A stretch of DNA of 64,000 nt from Leifsonia virtsii (GTDB taxonomy: Bacteria > Actinomycetota > Actinomycetes > Actinomycetales > Microbacteriaceae): the NCBI RefSeq assembly GCF_030433675.1, contig NZ_JAROCB010000001.1, positions 741,333 through 805,332 on the forward strand. Direction: 5' to 3'. The position numbers and the translations under genes were made by a program. Position 1 is the first letter of the stretch, and every line of letters begins with the position of its first letter. Below the pieces are notes generated by a model that did no database searches, had not been told where the DNA came from, and saw only the letters and a program-made list of their open reading frames with translations. Below, piece by piece: positions 5,423-47,272 of this stretch.

Positions 5423-6602
5423 TGTTGTGCACCTCCGCGTCGGCGACCTCGGCACGCTGGGCGCCGTCGAGGTCGCGGCTCTCGAGCCAGCCGTCGGGCA
5501 GGGCCGGGCGCTTCGGCGAACCGGCGCGGCCCCGCTGGCCCTCCGCGGCCTCGCCCGGGTACTCCTGATCCCAGTCAAGGGTCGCCAGGAGCTCGTCGAG
5601 GTGCTCGAGCGTGTCGACGGTGGCGAGGTTGGCGCGCAGGTCGCCGCCCACCGGGTAGCCCTTGAAGTACCAGGCGACGTGCTTGCGGATGTCGCGGCAG
5701 CCGCGCTCCTCGCTGTCGAAGAACTCGACCAGCAGCTCCGCGTGGCGGCGGAAGGTCTGCGCGACCTGACCGAGCGTCGGATGCGCCTGCGCGGCCGCAG
5801 CCTCTGCTGCGCTGATCTCGCCCGCGCGGGCGCGGAAAGCCGCCGCCAGGTCGCCGAACAGCCACGGCCGGCCGAGGCATCCACGGCCCACGACGACGCC
5901 GTCGCAGCCGGTCTCCTCGACCATCCGGATGGCGTCGGCCGCCGACCAGATGTCGCCGTTGCCGAGCACCGGGGTGGAGGTCACGGTCTCTTTGAGCTTC
6001 GCGATGGCCGACCAGTCGGCGTGGCCGGAGTAGAACTCCGCGGCCGTGCGCGCATGCAGTGCCATCGACGCAACGCCCGCGCCCTCGGCGATCCGCCCGG
6101 CCTCGAGGTAGGTCAGGTGGTCGCCGTCGATGCCCTTGCGCATCTTGATGGTCAGCGGGATGTCGCCGGCCGCCTTCACCGCGCCCTCGACGATCTCGCG
6201 GAACAGCCCGAGCTTCCACGGCAGCGCGGCGCCGCCGCCCTTGCGGGTCACCTTGGGCACCGGGCAGCCGAAGTTGAGGTCGATGTGGTCGGCGCGGTCC
6301 TCCGCGACGAGCATGGTCACGGCCTCGCGCACCGTCACCGGGTCGACCCCGTAGAGCTGGATGGAGCGCGGCGTCTCGGACTCGTGGTGCGTGATGAGCC
6401 GCAGGGACTCCGGCGTGCGCTCCACCAGCGCCCGTGACGTGATCATCTCGCTGACATAGAGACCCGCACCGAACTCGCGGCAGAGCCGGCGGAACGCCGT
6501 GTTGGTGATCCCCGCCATGGGCGCGAGGACCACGGGCACGTCGAGCGCCAGCGGACCGATGGTCAGCTGGGGAGCGTGGCTTAGGGTGGCTGTGGTAGAC
6601 AT
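5412..6602 (-). CDS. dusB: tRNA-dihydrouridine synthase (DusB/Dus family)
   Basis: A 396-residue flavoenzyme reducing uridines in tRNA D-loops to dihydrouridine. The TIM-barrel motifs are clear: APMAG at 27-31, the catalytic Cys113 in NFGCPVPKVTRKGGG, IKMRKGID, and the FMN phosphate-binding GNGDIW and VVGRGCLGRPW segments. The ATG at 6602 gives the usual N-terminus just before the LTIGPLALDVPVVLAPMAG entry. It is divergent from the YbaK-type gene, with 33 bp between the two starts, and is followed without a gap by dgt. Confidence 0.96.
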   Translation of the reverse strand: MSTTATLSHAPQLTIGPLALDVPVVLAPMAGITNTAFRRLCREFGAGLYVSEMITSRALVERTPESLRLITHHESETPRSIQLYGVDPVTVREAVTMLVAEDRADHIDLNFGCPVPKVTRKGGGAALPWKLGLFREIVEGAVKAAGDIPLTIKMRKGIDGDHLTYLEAGRIAEGAGVASMALHARTAAEFYSGHADWSAIAKLKETVTSTPVLGNGDIWSAADAIRMVEETGCDGVVVGRGCLGRPWLFGDLAAAFRARAGEISAAEAAAAQAHPTLGQVAQTFRRHAELLVEFFDSEERGCRDIRKHVAWYFKGYPVGGDLRANLATVDTLEHLDELLATLDWDQEYPGEAAEGQRGRAGSPKRPALPDGWLESRDLDGAQRAEVADAEVHNSGG

Positions 6603-6635
6603 CTCACTCGATTCTCCCAGAAAGCGTGCTGAGCT

Positions 6636-7154
6636 ATGGCCGAGAGCCCGGAATCCGTGGATAACTCCCCCGCCGCTGCGGCTGTGGACACCGGACGCAC
6701 CCGCGTCACGGCCGACGCAGAAGCCCGCGGGGTCGACATCCGCATCGTCGAGCGCCCCGCCGCGCGGAGCCTGGAGGAGGCGGCCGAGCTGCTGGGCATC
6801 CAGCCGTCCGACATCGTGAAGACGCTCGTGGTGAAGCGCAGCGACGACACCTTCGTCTTCGCGCTCGTTCCCGGCGGCCGCAAGATCGCGTGGGCGAAGC
6901 TGCGCGGCGTGCTCCAGGTGAACAAGCTGCAGCTGCCTGACGCCTCCGTCGCCCTCGCCGCGACCGGCTACGAGCGCGGCACCATCACGCCGTTCGGGAG
7001 CACGACCGCGTGGCCGGTCGTCGCCGACGCGACCATCCCGGGCCGGACGGTCTCGATGGGGGCGGGCGAGCACGGCTACTCCCTCTTCGTCGACGCGGAC
7101 GACCTCATCCGCGCCTTCGGCGCCACCGTCGCCGACATCACCGACCCCGAATAG
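6636..7154 (+). CDS. YbaK/EbsC family aminoacyl-tRNA deacylase
   Basis: A 172-residue stand-alone editing domain of the kind that removes mischarged amino acids from tRNA, for example Cys from tRNA(Pro) by YbaK. Family marks are ADIVKTLVV-like KTLVVK at about 67, the VPGGRKIAWAKL core, GYERGTITPFGS, and VSMGAGEHGYSLFV near the end. The 20 or so residues before the domain are Ala-rich and acidic. The proline tRNA synthetase at the right end of the window has its own inserted copy of this fold, so this enzyme is a trans-acting version or acts on another tRNA. Transcription diverges from dusB. Confidence 0.85.
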   Translation: MAESPESVDNSPAAAAVDTGRTRVTADAEARGVDIRIVERPAARSLEEAAELLGIQPSDIVKTLVVKRSDDTFVFALVPGGRKIAWAKLRGVLQVNKLQLPDASVALAATGYERGTITPFGSTTAWPVVADATIPGRTVSMGAGEHGYSLFVDADDLIRAFGATVADITDPE

Positions 7155-7177
7155 CCGCCGCGCGCCCCTTCCGATCT

Positions 7178-7231
7178 GTGGGACGCAACACGCCGCAATG
7201 CACGCGCGCATTGCGGCGTGTTGCGTCCCAC
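7178..7231. repeat. hairpin repeat family A, copy 1
   Basis: A perfect inverted repeat with 24-bp arms (7178-7201 and 7208-7231) and a 6-nt loop. The arm contains the family core GGGACGCAACACGCCG. It stands between the YbaK-type gene and the DUF559 gene, upstream of the latter. Copies 2-4 are at 8180, 11530 and 47221. The arms are far longer than normal intrinsic terminators and no T-run follows. Confidence 0.95.
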
Positions 7232-7291
7232 GGATTCGATGGGTGTGGATAACGTCCGCGGCGCGTCGGCGGATTTGCCAGAGTGATCGGC

Positions 7292-8203
7292 ATGCGCCGC
7301 CCCGCCGACCTTCCCCCCATCGCTCGTTCGTCATCCTTCTCCACCCGCACTGCGCAGCTCGCGGGCGTCACGCGATCGCGCCTCCGGCGCACAGACCTCA
7401 CGAGCCCGTATCACGGCGTCCGGCGGACGACCGATGCTCCGATGACGCTCGATGAGCGCTGCCGCGCCTACCAGCGGGTGATGCCGGACGGGCTGTTCTT
7501 CAGCCACGCCACGGCCGCCGCGCTCTACGGGCTGCCGCTGCCGCGCAGCGACCGCGAGCTGCTTCACGTGGGCGCGCGGCGCCCCAGACGGGCACCGCGC
7601 GCGGCCGGCATCGTCGGCCACCGTGTGACCCTTGGCGAGGGCAGCGTCTTCACCCTCCGCGGCCTTCCCGTTCCCGCGCCGGTCGAGGTTCTGCTCGAAC
7701 TCGCCGGGATGCTGGGACACGACGATCTCGTCCGGGTCGGAGATGCACTGGTGCGGCGCACGGACCCTCTGTCGTCGATGGAGGAGCTCCGCTCCGCCGT
7801 CGCCGGCGCCCAGGGGAGACCGGGCATCCCGACCCTGCGCAACGCTCTCGAATGGATGCGTGCACGCACCGACTCTCCCATGGAGACGACGCTCCGGCTG
7901 GCGCTGGTACGCTCGGGCCTTCCCGAACCGAGCATCAACCATGTCATCGACATCGGGAGCGGGCGGACGGCGCATCTCGACCTCGCCTACCCGAATCATC
8001 TCGTCGCGATCGAGTACGACGGGGACCACCACCGCACAGACGACCGGCAATATCACCTCGACGGCGACAGGCTGTGGCGGATCGAGAAGCGAGGGTGGCG
8101 GATCGTCCGCATCAACCGCTCACACATGGGCCACTCCGAAGAGGAAGCCGTCCGCCGGGTGCGCGACGCCCTCGCGTCTATGGGACGCAACACGCCGTTA
8201 TGA
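7292..8203 (+). CDS. DUF559 / AbiEi-type domain protein, probable PD-(D/E)XK nuclease fold
   Basis: A 303-residue protein with two parts. The N-terminal ~45 residues (RTAQLAGVTRSRLRRTDLTS) resemble the AbiEi-type winged-helix start found in actinobacterial genes of this class. The C-terminal part (about 200-295) is a DUF559 domain: HLDLAYPNHLVAIEYDGDHH followed by QYHLDGDRLWRIEKRGWRIV, which fits the Asp...Glu-x-Asp pattern of Vsr-like nucleases. No activity has been proven for most members. The ATG at 7292 is preferred; a GTG nine bases earlier is possible. The last seven residues, MGRNTPL, and the stop codon come from the left arm of hairpin copy 2, and copy 1 lies 60 bp upstream, so the gene is bracketed by the repeat. 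Confidence 0.8.
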   Translation: MRRPADLPPIARSSSFSTRTAQLAGVTRSRLRRTDLTSPYHGVRRTTDAPMTLDERCRAYQRVMPDGLFFSHATAAALYGLPLPRSDRELLHVGARRPRRAPRAAGIVGHRVTLGEGSVFTLRGLPVPAPVEVLLELAGMLGHDDLVRVGDALVRRTDPLSSMEELRSAVAGAQGRPGIPTLRNALEWMRARTDSPMETTLRLALVRSGLPEPSINHVIDIGSGRTAHLDLAYPNHLVAIEYDGDHHRTDDRQYHLDGDRLWRIEKRGWRIVRINRSHMGHSEEEAVRRVRDALASMGRNTPL

Positions 8204-8232
8204 CGAACGCAAAACGGCGTGTTGCGTCCCAT
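8180..8232. repeat. hairpin repeat family A, copy 2
   Basis: A perfect inverted repeat: arm ATGGGACGCAACACGCCGTT at 8180-8199, its complement at 8213-8232, and a 13-nt loop. The left arm is translated as the end of the DUF559 protein and the TGA stop (8201-8203) is in the loop. The right arm ends 3 bp before the stop of the DsbA tail frame on the minus strand, so it sits between convergent genes. Confidence 0.95.
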
Positions 8233-8235
8233 GGA

Positions 8236-8421
8236 TCAGGATGGGAGGGCGCAGGTGTCGCCGTCGCAGACGGCTCCGGCCCCGCCGAGCGGGACGAGCG
8301 CCGGGCGCAGCGCGGGCGCCGCTTGGGGCGTTCCCGCGTCCGAGGCCGCTCCGGCGGTCACGCCGACGGGTGCACCAGGCGCGGCCGCTGCGGGCGCGGC
8401 CGCTGCGGGTGCGCCGCTCAC
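8236..8421 (-). pseudogene. out-of-frame C-terminal tail of the DsbA/FrnE-like protein
   Basis: A 61-codon frame beginning at a GTG that overlaps the TGA of the DsbA gene (GTGA, 8421-8418). It encodes an Ala/Pro-rich linker and ends in CDGDTCALPS. In actinobacterial FrnE-like proteins a similar Cys-containing tail (C-x4-C or C-x2-DGC) commonly closes the protein, so this probably belongs to the upstream gene and is separated by a one-base frameshift. Alternatives are a coupled tiny ORF or programmed -1 frameshifting. The stop sits directly next to hairpin copy 2, as expected for a true gene end. Confidence 0.55.
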
Positions 8422-9089
8422 GCGGTCACCGCCGCGCGCTCGGACCAGACCTGCTCCAGGACCTGGGCGAAGGTCTGCGCGTCCTGGGCGCCGGAGACGC
8501 CGTACTTGCCCTCGATGACGAAGAACGGGACACCGTTGATGCCGTACTCGACAGCGGTCGACTGGTCGGCGCGCACGTCGGAGAGGTACTGGTTCGACTC
8601 GAGGGCGGCCACGGCCTCCGCGCGGTCCAGACCGACCTCGGCGGCCAGGTCGGCGAGGTCTTCGACGCGACCGACGTGGCGGCCCTCCACGAAGTACGCG
8701 CGGAAGAGGCGCTCCGCCAGCTCCAGCTGCTTGCCGTTGGCCTTCGCGAAGTGCAGCAGCTCGTGAGCCTTCACGGTGTTGGTGTGCTTCAGGTGCTCGA
8801 AGTCGTAGTCGAGGCCGACGGACGAGGCGATTCCGGTCACCCGCTCCAGCATCTGCTCCACCTGGCCGGCGGGAAGACCCTTGTGGCCGGCGAGGAAGTC
8901 GACCTCGCTGCCGTCGAAGTCGACCGGGGTGTCCGGGGACAGCTCGAACGAGTGGTACTCGACCTCGACGGCGCGGCCGTCGCCTGCGCCCGAGAAGAGG
9001 CCGCTGCCGGCCTCGAACTTGCGCTTGCCGATGTAGCACCACGGGCACGCGATATCGGACCAGACGTCGATCTTGATGGGTTCGCTCAC
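8418..9089 (-). CDS. DsbA family (FrnE-like) thiol oxidoreductase
   Basis: A cytosolic-type DsbA-fold protein of 223 residues with no signal peptide. The active-site CPWC is at residues 15-18 within the family motif WSDIACPWCYIGKRKFE. The helical insert and the closing GVPFFVIEGKYGVSGAQDAQTF segment, including the cis-Pro loop GVPFF, are complete, so the enzyme core is intact. The GTG at 9089 gives the usual N-terminus. The frame ends in SERAAVTA with a TGA, but the adjoining frame continues into a tail of the type expected for this family (see 8236-8421). It may act as disulfide isomerase or oxidoreductase, or as an uncharacterised FrnE-like enzyme. Confidence 0.88.
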   Translation of the reverse strand: MSEPIKIDVWSDIACPWCYIGKRKFEAGSGLFSGAGDGRAVEVEYHSFELSPDTPVDFDGSEVDFLAGHKGLPAGQVEQMLERVTGIASSVGLDYDFEHLKHTNTVKAHELLHFAKANGKQLELAERLFRAYFVEGRHVGRVEDLADLAAEVGLDRAEAVAALESNQYLSDVRADQSTAVEYGINGVPFFVIEGKYGVSGAQDAQTFAQVLEQVWSERAAVTA

Positions 9090-9118
9090 GAAAGAAGCAA
9101 CATCGTGCACGACTGCAG

Positions 9119-9931
9119 TTATTCCGACGCCGCGGTGGGCGTGTCGACCGCTCCCCCGAACCTCCGGTTGCGCTGCTGGTACAACGTCACGGCCTCCCAC
9201 AGGTCGGTCCGGCTGAAGTCCGGCCACAGCGTGTCGAGGAACACCATCTCGGCGTACGCGCTCTGCCAGAGCAGGAAGTTGCTGGTGCGCTGCTCCCCCG
9301 AGCTCCGCACGAACAGGTCGACGTCGGGCATGTCGGGCAGGTACAGGTGGCGCTGGATGGTCTTCTCGCTCACCGCGGACGGACGCAGCCGGCCCGCGGC
9401 CACCTCGTCGGCGATGGACCGCACAGCGTCGGCGATCTCCGTCCGGCCGCCGTAGTTGACGCACATGGTCAAGGTCAGCACGTCATTCCCGGCGGTGAGC
9501 CGCTCGGCGTACTGCAGCTCCTTGATCACCGACGACCACAGCCGCGGCTTGCGGCCGGCCCACCGCACCCGCACGCCCCACTCGTTGAGCTGGTCGCGCC
9601 GCCGGTGCAGCACATCGCGGTTGAAGCCCATCAGGAAGCGGACCTCGTCGGGCGAGCGCTTCCAGTTCTCGGTCGAGAAGGCGTAGACGCTGAGGTGCTT
9701 GATCCCGGCCTGGATGGCTCCCGCCACCACGTCGAGCAGGGCCGCCTCCCCTGCCCGGTGCCCCTCGATCCGGGTCAGGCCCTGGCGGTTCGCCCAGCGG
9801 CCGTTGCCGTCCATGACGATGGCGACGTGCGACGGCACGCTGCCCGCGGGGAACGCGGGAGGGTACACCCCGGTCCAGTCGAGCGGGCGGTACTCGACCG
9901 CGTCCTTGTGCGTGTACGGCTTCGGACTCAT
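9119..9931 (-). CDS. uppS: isoprenyl (undecaprenyl) diphosphate synthase
   Basis: A 270-residue cis-prenyltransferase making the lipid carrier for cell-wall synthesis. Motif [18 protein letters not shown], gives the catalytic Asp41; GHRAG follows, then [12 protein letters not shown], and the C-terminal [20 protein letters not shown] and WPDF blocks are all present. Length is normal. The ATG at 9931 overlaps the recO stop in an ATGA arrangement, so recO and uppS are coupled. Confidence 0.96.
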
Positions 9932-10677
9932 CCACTCGCCTTCTGATCGTCGCTGTCGTGCGCCACGTGCTGGAGCGAGCGCAGCCCGCGCTCCAGGTGC
10001 CACTGGGTGTACGCCGCCACCACGCCGTTGGCGCGGCCTCGGGTGGTCTCTGACGCCGCCTCGGCCGCCTCCCAGTCGCCGGTCAGCAGCGCGCCGAGGA
10101 GGGCGATGGTGTCGGCGTCGACCCGCGGAGCGCCTTGCGGCGCGCAGTCGTCGCACACCACGCCGCCGAGCTGGACGACGATGTGCGTGTGCGGGCCGGG
10201 GGTGCCGCAGCGCGAGCAATCCTGGAAGCTGGGCGCCCAGCCCGCGAGCGACAGCGCCCGCAGCAGGTAGGAGTCGAGCGTGAGCCCGGCGCCGTGCTCC
10301 CGGCGCGAGAGCGAGCGCAGAGCGCCGACGAGCAGGAGGTACTGCTGCAGGGAGGCCTCGGCGTCGGTGAGCCGGTCGGCCGCCTCCACCATCGCGTTCG
10401 CCGCGGTGTAGCTGGCGTAGTCGTCTGCGATCAGCGCGCCGTAGGCGCCGAGCGTCTCAGCCTGGGTGATCACGTCGAGGCTGCGGCCCTCGTACAGCTG
10501 CACGTCGGCGACCATGAACGGCTCAAGCCTGGACCCGAAGCGGGACGCCGTGCGCCGCACGCCCTTCGCGACCGCGCGGATCTTGCCGTGCTGCCGGCTG
10601 AGCATGGTGACGATGCGGTCGGCTTCCCCCAGCTTGTGGGTGCGGAGCACGACGGCTTCATCACGGTAGACAGGCAC
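9928..10677 (-). CDS. recO: DNA repair protein RecO
   Basis: A 249-residue recombination mediator that helps load RecA at ssDNA gaps. The N-terminal OB fold starts [23 protein letters not shown], typical of RecO, and the C-terminal part has a Cys4 zinc-binding module ([10 protein letters not shown]...CDDCAPQG). The GTG at 10677 is chosen because it gives the standard RecO start; further upstream the frame is open but not RecO-like. It is transcribed toward uppS and overlaps it by 4 nt, a neighbourhood shared by many actinobacteria. Confidence 0.95.
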
Positions 10678-10759
10678 ACTCCAGTATCGCGCGCTCCCCT
10701 GACAGGTCGGCGGATGCGGACGGCGAGGCACAGCCGCCGGGAGATGGTACATATGGTGG

Positions 10760-11512
10760 GTGAGCACGACCGCCGCCCTCTCGATCCCGCTGTGGGGCGA
10801 CCTGATCGCCGTCGGCGTCGGCAGCCTGCAGGGCGCCATGTTCGCGGCGGGCTTCCGCGACCGCAGGCTCGACCTGCTCGGCGTCGCCATCATCGGCGTG
10901 GCGACCGGCATCGGCGGCGGCCTGCTGCGCGACCTGCTGCTCAACGTCACCCCGGTGGCGCTGCAGTCCAACTGGTACCTGCCCGCGACGGTCGTCTCCG
11001 CACTGCTCGGGATGCTGCTGATCCGGCTGTTCCGCCGGCTCGACCCGGTCATCACCTTCCTCGACGCGCTCACCATCGGGCTCTTCGGGGCGATCGGTGC
11101 GAGCAAGGCGCTGGCGCTCGGGCTGCCGGAGGTGCCCGCGGTGTTCGTCGGCGTGGTCGCCGCGGTCGGCGGGTCGATCCTGCGCGATGTGCTGCTGAAC
11201 CTCCCGATCGCGCTCATGCACGTCGGCTCGCTGTACGCGGTGGCCGCGGGCGCCGGGACGATCGTGCTCGTGGGGATGATCGACCTCGGTGCGCCCCTGA
11301 CGGTCGCCGCGATCGTCTGCGTGGTGGTGACGCTGGTCATCCGGCTCCTGGCCGTGCGGTTCGGCTGGAGTCTGCCGGAGCAGCGGGAGCTCGGCCGCAT
11401 CCCGACGCCCCGGTGGATGGTGTTCGGCCGCCGCCCGAGCGCCTCGCGCACGACGGAGCGCACCGACACGGGAGCCCTCCCCCGTTACCGCATCGACAAG
11501 CCCGGCGACTAG
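10760..11512 (+). CDS. TRIC-type (UPF0126/YicG family) membrane cation channel
   Basis: A 250-residue integral membrane protein with about seven hydrophobic helices and the two internal-repeat signatures of the prokaryotic TRIC family: [13 protein letters not shown] near residue 52 and [12 protein letters not shown] near 137. Family members form trimeric monovalent-cation channels; some were earlier proposed to move glycine. The last ~45 residues are a basic cytoplasmic tail ending in a Pro/Arg-rich stretch. The gene is divergent from recO (82-bp gap) and convergent with leuA across hairpin copy 3. The GTG at 10760 is the best start, lying shortly after a TACATA sequence. Confidence 0.88.
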
Positions 11513-11529
11513 GCGCCCGCCGCGAAACG

Positions 11530-11582
11530 ATGGGGCGCAACACGCCGTTCCGCGGGAGCGATAACGGCGTGTTGCGCCCCAT
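11530..11582. repeat. hairpin repeat family A, copy 3
   Basis: Perfect 20-bp arms (11530-11549 and 11563-11582) with a 13-nt loop, the same geometry as copy 2. The arm reads ATGGGGCGCAACACGCCGTT: compared with copy 2 the A at position 6 is G, and the facing T in the right arm is C, so pairing is kept. It fills the gap between convergent TRIC and leuA genes and may end transcription from both sides. Confidence 0.95.
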
Positions 11583-11588
11583 GGACGG

Positions 11589-13430
<1,842 letters not shown>

Positions 13431-46415: not shown

Positions 46416-47225
46416 GTGGATCCACAGCGCACCGGACCGATGACCGCGCTCGCCGACTGGGCGAACGGCGAACTGCGGTTCCGCGACGACTGCGAATTAG
46501 TGGAGACCGAGCTGCTCGGCGCCGACTCCTTCCTGGTCGAGGAGGGCCGCGTCCTCGCTCTCGGCCTGCACCGGTCCCGGTTCGCCGAGACCGCGCGCGA
46601 GCAGGGCTTCGGCGACCTCGGCAAGCTGGAGGCGTTCTGGGACGCCGGGATCGCCGCCCTGCCGCGCGACGGCGCCTGGTTCCCGCGGTTCGAGCTGGTG
46701 CGTGTCCGGGACGCGCTGCGGCTGCGGTTCCGGCAGCGTACGGCTCCGGAGCGGACGTCGTCGGTCGTCGTCGCGACCGCGGACGCCGACCCGCGCCGGG
46801 TCCCGCACCTCAAGGGTCCGGACATCGACCGGCTGAGCGCGCTCCGGCCGAAGGCGCAGCGGCGCGGCGCGCAGGAGGCCGTGATCCTGGACGACGGCCG
46901 CGTCTCGGACGGCGCGACGACCGCGTTGCTGTGGTGGCGCGGCGGGACGCTGTTCGCTCCCCCGTTCGAGCTGCCGCGCGTCGACAGCGTCGCCGCGCGG
47001 ACGGTGCGCGGCATCGCGGCGGCGCTCGGCGTCCCGGTCGAAGAGGAGTCCGTGCGCCCGTCGGAGCTCGACGGCGCGGTGCTGTGGGCGGTCAACGCGC
47101 TGCACGGCATCCGGCCGGTGACCTCCTGGGTCGACGGTCCTGTCCTCGCCGCCGATCCGGCGCGCACGGACGCCTGGCGCGCCCGCTTCGCAGCGCTCGC
47201 CCGGCCGCTCCCTTCGCCGAGTTGA
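46416..47225 (+). CDS. pabC: class IV aminotransferase-like, probable aminodeoxychorismate lyase (PabC)
   Basis: A 269-residue PLP fold type IV protein. Key segments are FRDDCELVETELLGADSFLVEEGR, LHRSRFAETAREQG, and the PLP region HLKGPDIDRLSALRPKAQRRGAQEAVILDDGRVSDGATTALLWW, where the Lys in HLKGPD is the Schiff-base candidate. The position beside pabB supports release of 4-aminobenzoate and pyruvate from aminodeoxychorismate. Divergence from canonical PabC is noticeable, and branched-chain or D-amino acid aminotransferase activity cannot be excluded. A GTG at 46416 or ATG at 46440 may start it; the -10 spacing favours the GTG. Confidence 0.85.
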   Translation: MDPQRTGPMTALADWANGELRFRDDCELVETELLGADSFLVEEGRVLALGLHRSRFAETAREQGFGDLGKLEAFWDAGIAALPRDGAWFPRFELVRVRDALRLRFRQRTAPERTSSVVVATADADPRRVPHLKGPDIDRLSALRPKAQRRGAQEAVILDDGRVSDGATTALLWWRGGTLFAPPFELPRVDSVAARTVRGIAAALGVPVEEESVRPSELDGAVLWAVNALHGIRPVTSWVDGPVLAADPARTDAWRARFAALARPLPSPS

Positions 47226-47272
47226 CACGACACGCCGTGCGGCCGGCGGGCTGCGCGGCGTGTTGCGTCAAC
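47221..47272. repeat. hairpin repeat family A, copy 4 (diverged)
   Basis: Arms 47221-47240 and 47253-47272 pair at 17 Watson-Crick positions plus two G-T wobbles and one mismatch, with a 12-nt loop. Core CACGCCG and the right arm GGCGTGTTGCGTC match the family. It overlaps the pabC stop and precedes the cydC stop on the other strand, again between convergent genes. Confidence 0.85.

What the first reader, a model, noticed from the sequence alone, without database searches (positions are those of the whole stretch)
7178..8232. A DUF559 nuclease-like gene bracketed by two copies of a long perfect hairpin
Copies 1 and 2 of hairpin family A sit just upstream (24-bp arms) and at the 3' end (20-bp arms) of the DUF559 gene, and two more copies sit elsewhere without the gene. 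This is the arrangement seen for REP sequences and their RAYT transposases: a nuclease-type protein flanked by the palindromes it might move or process, plus stand-alone copies. DUF559 belongs to the PD-(D/E)XK nuclease group and has no established function with hairpins. The link is an inference from position only, but it could be an undescribed repeat-nuclease system.
Basis: partly seen in the sequence, partly recalled or inferred. Interest (0 to 1): 0.75.

Follow-up and report, generated by a model that had tools for sequence, protein, structure and literature searches.

The report
Nuclease genes bracketed by dispersed palindromes
A bacterial gene for a probable DNA-cutting protein sits between two copies of a long mirror-image DNA sequence that is also scattered through the genome, and many related genes come with their own different mirror-image sequence, pointing to an undescribed family of gene-and-repeat partners.

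Summary
The window (genus Leifsonia) carries a DUF559/MTES_1575-type nuclease gene between two ~60-bp palindromes; the genome holds 50 exact-core copies (reversed control 0), mostly just past gene ends. The exception (G203) has its gene bracketed by a different palindrome. Paralogues about 40% identical are bracketed by their own palindromes (42 of 51), as are homologues in other actinobacteria (46 of 77; control genes 6 of 198). A paralogue palindrome and a Curtobacterium palindrome are dispersed as well. Palindrome similarity falls with protein similarity. One solo copy is a clean 55-bp presence/absence difference between sister species. The protein joins an AbiEi-like DNA-binding region to a nuclease domain; published AbiEi proteins bind paired 23-bp inverted repeats. 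Best reading: a REP/RAYT-like nuclease-palindrome system with an unrelated enzyme (no Y1 transposase found in 28 genomes). Binding, cutting and mobilisation are inferred, not shown.

The parts
7174..7235 (.). upstream palindrome (type A, spacer 18 between the ACACGCCG cores), left border of the cassette
7283..8203 (+). nuclease gene: AbiEi-like N-terminal region plus C-terminal MTES_1575/DUF559-type nuclease domain (GTG start as listed; ATG at 7292 likely)
8177..8235 (.). downstream palindrome (type A, spacer 17), contains the stop codon of the gene; right border of the cassette
11530..11582 (.). solo palindrome (type A) between convergent genes, after a glycine-transporter-family gene
47221..47272 (.). 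solo palindrome of the second subtype (type B, outer arm GTTGAC, spacer 18) between convergent genes

Best explanation
This is a two-part system. Part one is a gene for a protein with an AbiEi-like DNA-binding region and a DUF559/EDxHD-like nuclease domain, kept at one locus in the genus. Part two is its cognate ~60-bp palindrome, made of two ~22-bp half-sites around a spacer of nearly fixed length. Two copies delimit the gene as a cassette and dozens of solo copies sit mostly just past the ends of other genes. Most likely two protein molecules bind the two half-sites (as AbiEi and Rv2827c do on paired 23-bp inverted repeats), the nuclease domains cut or nick near the spacer, and repair of the break copies or moves palindromes, making them REP-like elements served by a resident nuclease. 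Shown: bracketing, copies tied to the gene, a separate palindrome for different paralogues, co-divergence, fixed architecture, species-specific presence of some copies. Inferred: binding, cutting, mobilisation.
For: 50 copies, control 0. Gene and repeat co-occur, 18 of 19 against 1 of 9. The gene-less locus differs by the palindrome-gene-palindrome segment. G203 has a swapped palindrome: 2 copies, both flanking its gene, and 0 in the 27 other genomes. Paralogues: 42 of 51 with matched sides. The paralogue palindrome GCCGAATGTCG is present in all 7 genomes in whose fetched paralogue loci I saw that flank. Curtobacterium GAGCAGAA palindrome: 50, 19, 21, 32, 14 and 4 copies in six genomes whose homologue has it upstream (both sides in 2 of 6), 0 in six genomes chosen as controls. 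Among 97 bracketed genes, pairs over 70% identical share the palindrome in 35 of 35 cases, pairs at 30-45% in about 1% or fewer. Clean 55-bp presence/absence in a sister species. Nuclease-like residues conserved; profile matches to 3hrl and 3r3p; AbiEi profiles E about 1e-7; AbiEi-type proteins bind 23-bp inverted repeats set 3 or 13 bp apart (PMC7319586, passages). Orthologue median identity 52% against 84-87% for three neighbours. No Y1 transposase match in 28 of 28 genomes.
Against: No binding, cutting or movement was measured. G207 has 9 copies and no orthologue; G217 has 26 copies and its orthologue is split in two pieces. G203's palindrome is not dispersed. Type B copies in this genome do not match the resident gene's arms. 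Solo arms fit the own gene best in only 3 of 7 genomes, though better than the average of the others in 7 of 7 (a sample of exact-core copies). The GCCGAATGTCG palindrome also occurs at 1-2 copies in three genomes where I saw no gene with that flank. 31 of 77 named homologues and 9 of 51 paralogues fail the bracket test. The polarity of the 55-bp difference is unknown. Arms covary within genome in 7 of 8 sets at p<0.05, which duplex recognition alone does not predict.
Confidence: 0.6

Rival explanations
1. Homing-type cassette: the nuclease cuts solo palindromes and the palindrome-gene-palindrome cassette is copied into the break, so the palindromes are target sites rather than the cargo that spreads.
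For: The nuclease-domain profile matches 3r3p, 'Mobile intron protein', E 0.0064; that this is the EDxHD homing endonuclease I-Bth0305I is recalled. A review says that enzyme dimerises on a target of nearly 60 bp (PMC3943268, passages). The cassette runs palindrome to palindrome.
Against: In the genus 19 of 19 orthologues lie beside one or both of the same neighbours. Of 9 gene-less genomes, the 8 whose locus I saw have no ACACGCCG palindrome there (one, G214, has an unrelated short one). Homing genes normally interrupt their target (recalled). It does not by itself explain some 50 solo copies.
Confidence: 0.17
2. AbiEi-like regulator: the upstream palindrome is the operator of the gene and the dispersed copies are sites of a genome-wide DNA-binding protein; the nuclease domain has another task, such as defence.
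For: The N-terminus matches AbiEi profiles; AbiEi and Rv2827c repress their own promoters through paired 23-bp inverted repeats (passages). The upstream palindrome mostly lies about 50-120 bp before the start.
Against: Does not explain the matched downstream palindrome, the preference for gene 3' ends or the differences between species.
Confidence: 0.12
3. Ordinary transcription terminators or 3'-end RNA hairpins whose stem sequence happens to be shared, with no functional tie to the nuclease gene.
For: Copies lie past gene 3' ends (median 23 bp from core to end, 51 of 55 measurable) and are enriched between convergent genes: 29 convergent, 22 tandem, 2 divergent and 2 unassigned of 55, against 31 of 208 intergenic gaps over 60 bp (genes by my own simple caller). 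Arms covary in most sets.
Against: No T tract: 0 terminator-like sites in 6600-12000. It predicts neither the gene-tied presence nor matched pairs around paralogues. The core is near-invariant.
Confidence: 0.07

Closest known systems
REPtron (REP palindromes with tnpAREP/RAYT)
   Same: Nuclease-type gene next to palindromes, mostly single copy and not itself seen to move; copies dispersed genome-wide, presence of the gene often correlated with their number (PMC8266576, passages); repeats predominantly downstream of genes (PMC3733652, abstract).
   Different: The enzyme is a DUF559/EDxHD-type nuclease, not an HuH enzyme: 0 of 28 genomes match PF01797. Palindromes are mostly 53-67 bp (REPs 20-40 bp) and have no regular GTAG tag.
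EDxHD homing endonucleases (I-Bth0305I)
   Same: Weak profile match of the nuclease domain (identity of 3r3p with I-Bth0305I recalled); a target of nearly 60 bp bound by a dimer according to a review.
   Different: The gene does not interrupt its target; two whole palindromes flank it and many solo copies exist.
AbiEi / Rv2827c antitoxins (type IV toxin-antitoxin)
   Same: N-terminal region matches AbiEi profiles; AbiEi and Rv2827c bind paired 23-bp inverted repeats; 23+13+23 bp in the Rv2827c promoter makes 59 bp.
   Different: A nuclease domain is fused at the C-terminus; the palindrome is on both sides of the gene and dispersed; no toxin gene was recognised next door.

Membership tests
REPtron | HuH Y1-type transposase (PF01797) | tested here: not met
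   0 of 28 genus genomes at E <= 0.001; 5 of 14 control genomes ring, E. coli among them
REPtron | palindromes next to the enzyme gene | tested here: met
REPtron | solo copies dispersed, number correlated with the gene | tested here: met
   presence tied to the gene and many solo copies
REPtron | element of 20-40 bp | tested here: not met
   39 of 51 upstream and 38 of 51 downstream palindromes of paralogues are 53-67 bp; REP size from the abstract
REPtron | GTAG tag at the foot of the palindrome | tested here: not met
   GTAG or CTAC near the feet in 6 of 37 type A and 1 of 17 type B elements
REPtron | enzyme acts on the folded single strand | not testable with these tools
   strand covariation was mixed
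EDxHD/Vsr-like nuclease | conserved E, D, x, H, D nuclease residues | tested here: inconclusive
   E201, E244, H250 and D260 invariant in 80 sequences, D233 in at least 90%; profile matches 3hrl E 0.0022 and 3r3p E 0.0064; no structure could be predicted. Equating these residues with the motif is my inference
EDxHD homing endonuclease | gene interrupts its own target site | tested here: not met
   whole palindromes on both sides; no palindrome of this type at the 8 gene-less loci seen, of 9
DUF559 / MTES_1575 Pfam families | match above curated cut-off | tested here: not met
   30.2 bits against 38.2 for MTES_1575 in the window protein. At E up to 0.01, which is not the cut-off, 77 of 80 family members hit MTES_1575 and 51 of 80 DUF559
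AbiEi | AbiEi-like DNA-binding region | tested here: met
   PADLOC AbiEi E 1.3e-7 over residues 17-143 of the window protein; 3 of 4 proteins scanned hit; but Pfam AbiEi_1 and AbiEi_4 hit only 3 and 2 of 80
AbiEi | cognate AbiEii toxin next door | tested here: inconclusive
   upstream neighbour is a tRNA-editing-domain gene; the downstream one reads as dsbA-type (my reading of the ORF); no family scan was run on it

The most novel reading that the evidence does not exclude
A large, so far undescribed family of actinobacterial nucleases each recognises its own ~60-bp palindrome in duplex DNA through an AbiEi-like region and spreads it through the genome: a second and unrelated origin of REP-like elements, in which dozens of natural protein-palindrome pairs give a ready-made specificity code.
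Probability: 0.5. Interest if true: 0.93.

Novelty: new variant of a known kind. Interest (0 to 1): 0.86.

Why it matters
REP elements are tied to one enzyme class, and how they spread is called poorly understood (abstract of PMC8266576 in the listing; passages). A second, unrelated nuclease class with the same genomic habit would make the question testable by comparison, give a function to a protein family named as of unknown function, and explain many intergenic palindromes in actinobacteria. Many protein-palindrome pairs that differ in sequence but share a layout would also serve to read out how such proteins recognise DNA.

Tried and rejected
Rejected: chance; plain terminators (and gene-tied presence); RAYT-driven spread; a known RNA family (0 hits at gathering score). 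Tried without result: which protein segment tracks the palindrome (all four segments alike, rho 0.14-0.20); deciding duplex against hairpin from covariation. In the window's type A set there is none (523 paired cells against 520.8 expected), but 7 of 8 within-genome sets have p<0.05 for the total (one of them pools two genomes), so this stays undecided. My first subtype sort was faulty, kept only 11 elements and is replaced. Covariation pooled over several genomes is inflated by genome-specific subtypes, so only one search is used. Two places were left out of the subtype counts as neither type (L054, inside a gene and without outer arms; L021), and L054 also from the orientation count.

Limits of the counts. 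Control genes are neighbours in the same loci. The 51 paralogue loci are those fetched, not every paralogue listed. One search used only genes that had passed the bracket test. The six control genomes were picked because their own flanks differ. Fisher values ignore shared ancestry. Genes in fetched stretches were called by my own simple script.

Literature: ten searches in one open-access library; those naming DUF559, MTES_1575 or PF18741 (38, 39, 55, 84, 85, 86) listed no paper whose title or abstract joins that family to palindromes (137 papers, 10 listed; 81, 12 listed). Subscription papers and preprints were not searched.

Full report
What is in the window. The gene at 7283-8203 lies between palindromes at 7174-7235 and 8177-8235, with a third copy at 11530-11582 and a diverged one at 47221-47272. 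All four fold better than 200 shuffles as single-stranded DNA. The genome has 50 exact-core copies, reversed control 0, spacers 16-18 only. Six more places with one core mismatch were seen, one of them a chance match inside a gene (L054). The 56 places sort into 37 type A (outer arm like ATCCRTGGGNCGCR, 33 with spacer 17), 17 type B (outer arm with GTTGAC, 15 with spacer 18) and 2 of neither type. The eight core bases hardly vary; the spacer sequence is nearly free. Of 55 kept places 29 lie between convergent genes, 22 in tandem gaps, 2 in divergent gaps and 2 could not be assigned; where a 3' gene end borders the gap (51 of 55) the core lies a median of 23 bp from it, 14-31 bp in 32 of 51.

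The gene and the repeat go together. The genus is Leifsonia (record titles). In 28 genomes the orthologue is found in 19, in all 19 beside one or both of the same ybaK-type and dsbA-type neighbours. Exact-core copies occur in 18 of these 19 and in 1 of the 9 others. Seventeen of the 19 have a palindrome on both sides; G200 and G219 lie at contig ends and show one. In 12 gene-bearing loci where a conserved downstream motif was found, the ybaK-type stop lies 1,067-1,173 bp from it; in the five gene-less loci where it was found the distance is 25-99 bp, and 25 bp in G207, whose ybaK-type protein is the closest to the window's among the gene-less. So the difference is the palindrome-gene-palindrome segment and a few bases. 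The locus was seen in 8 of the 9 gene-less genomes (not G222); none has an ACACGCCG palindrome there, and G214 has an unrelated short one. The exception G203 has the gene bracketed by another palindrome, present twice in G203 and nowhere else in the 28. G215 has diverged cores beside its gene. Against this, G207 has 9 copies without the gene and G217 has 26 with a split gene.

Each relative has its own palindrome. The paralogues (about 40% identical) are bracketed by unrelated palindromes, e.g. of the types CGAGGGGCACGTAAACGCCCC, ATTCGTGCCGAATGTCG and GATTTGTGCCAAATC. The two sides match each other in 42 of 51 fetched genes, against 57 of 603 cross-gene comparisons; 39 of 51 upstream and 38 of 51 downstream palindromes are 53-67 bp long. 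In 80 named actinobacterial loci (best 80 of at least 553), 46 of 77 analysable genes have matched sides against 6 of 198 neighbour genes. Over 97 bracketed genes, palindrome similarity falls with protein identity: pairs above 70% share it in 35 of 35 cases, 55-70% in 43% of 214, 45-55% in 21% of 283, and pairs at 30-45% in 1% or fewer of 4,110; 14 pairs below 30% include about one match. Other palindromes are dispersed too: GCCGAATGTCG in 11 of 28 Leifsonia genomes, among them all 7 in whose fetched paralogue loci I saw that flank (1 to 14 copies), an eighth (G215) where a copy abuts a split paralogue by coordinates, and three with 1-2 copies and no such gene seen. A Curtobacterium palindrome has 50, 19, 21, 32, 14 and 4 copies in six genomes whose homologue carries it upstream (both sides in 2 of 6) and 0 in six others picked as controls.

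Turnover. Against the sister genome G213 (flanks about 91-98% identical outside the nuclease gene), 14 copies lay in 464 kb of the window's contig; 3 had no counterpart sequence in the G213 contig, and of 11 comparable, 8 are shared and 3 are absent from G213: one a clean 55-bp difference, one a messy gap, one occupied by a different palindrome. All 9 copies found in the G213 contig lie at places where G000 has a copy, one of them decayed. At the 8 shared sites the arms differ at 28 of 352 positions and the spacers at 40 of 140 aligned positions. The gap after the glycine-transporter-family gene carries palindromes of several kinds in different species. Solo arms resemble the own gene's arms more than the average of other genomes in 7 of 7 genomes, but are closest to their own in only 3 of 7.

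The protein. The N-terminal half matches AbiEi profiles (E 1.3e-7; Pfam's AbiEi models hit only a few of 80 members). The C-terminal part matches MTES_1575 weakly, and a profile of that part reaches 3hrl (E 0.0022) and 3r3p (E 0.0064) among solved structures; that 3r3p is I-Bth0305I is recalled. E201, E244, H250 and D260 are invariant in 80 sequences, so the nuclease is probably active. The orthologue evolves fast: median identity 52% (16 loci) against 84-87% for three neighbours. AbiEi and Rv2827c bind pairs of 23-bp inverted repeats 3 and 13 bp apart (PMC7319586, passages; PMC3985639, passages), and I-Bth0305I is said to dimerise on nearly 60 bp (PMC3943268, passages). Both fit a ~60-bp dyad read in duplex DNA. 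Covariation of the arms at p<0.05 in 7 of 8 within-genome sets keeps a hairpin or cruciform stage open.

Mechanism. I propose that two molecules bind the two half-sites, cut or nick near the spacer, and that repair copies or moves palindromes, with gene 3' ends as tolerated landing places. The free spacer of nearly fixed length and the strict core fit this. Binding, cutting and movement are inferred. Homing of the whole cassette, a regulator role and plain terminators are the rivals.

Known kinds. It works like a REPtron but is not one: no Y1 transposase match in 28 of 28 genomes, longer elements, no regular GTAG tag. It is not a homing gene of the usual layout. I therefore call it a new variant of a known kind, with an unrelated enzyme; if duplex recognition and mobilisation were shown it would deserve a class of its own.

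Noticed in passing
G000 contig C2 and the rest: Copies are uneven: 28 of 50 lie on the 1.24-Mb contig C2, 22 on the remaining 2.96 Mb; cause unknown.
   Followed up: no
window 11512-11590 and orthologous gaps (loci L072-L097): The gap after the glycine-transporter-family gene carries palindromes of different kinds in different Leifsonia species, as if it were a preferred landing place.
   Followed up: partly
G134 (another genus of the family), L252-L261: 67 ACACGCCG palindromes; in 9 of the 10 stretches read the outer arm is like TTCAGGCTGTGCTGCG with spacer 20. The partner gene was not looked for.
   Followed up: no
paralogue flanks such as L125, L272, L276, L292: Half-arms of the ATTCGTGCCGAAT type are themselves palindromic, a palindrome inside a palindrome.
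   Followed up: no
L002, L017, L046, L047, L055: Type A and type B palindromes stand side by side in one gap in five places, like mosaic REP clusters.
   Followed up: no
window 8236-8418, minus strand: A short reading frame ending in CDGDTCALPS whose stop abuts the downstream palindrome; the DNA of its end recurs at the same place in other Leifsonia species.
   Followed up: partly
G213 C22, site orthologous to G000 C2:457534: An unrelated palindrome (arm with AACAGCTCCGGAGTTCTTCGAGC) occupies the place where the window genome has a type A copy.
   Followed up: no
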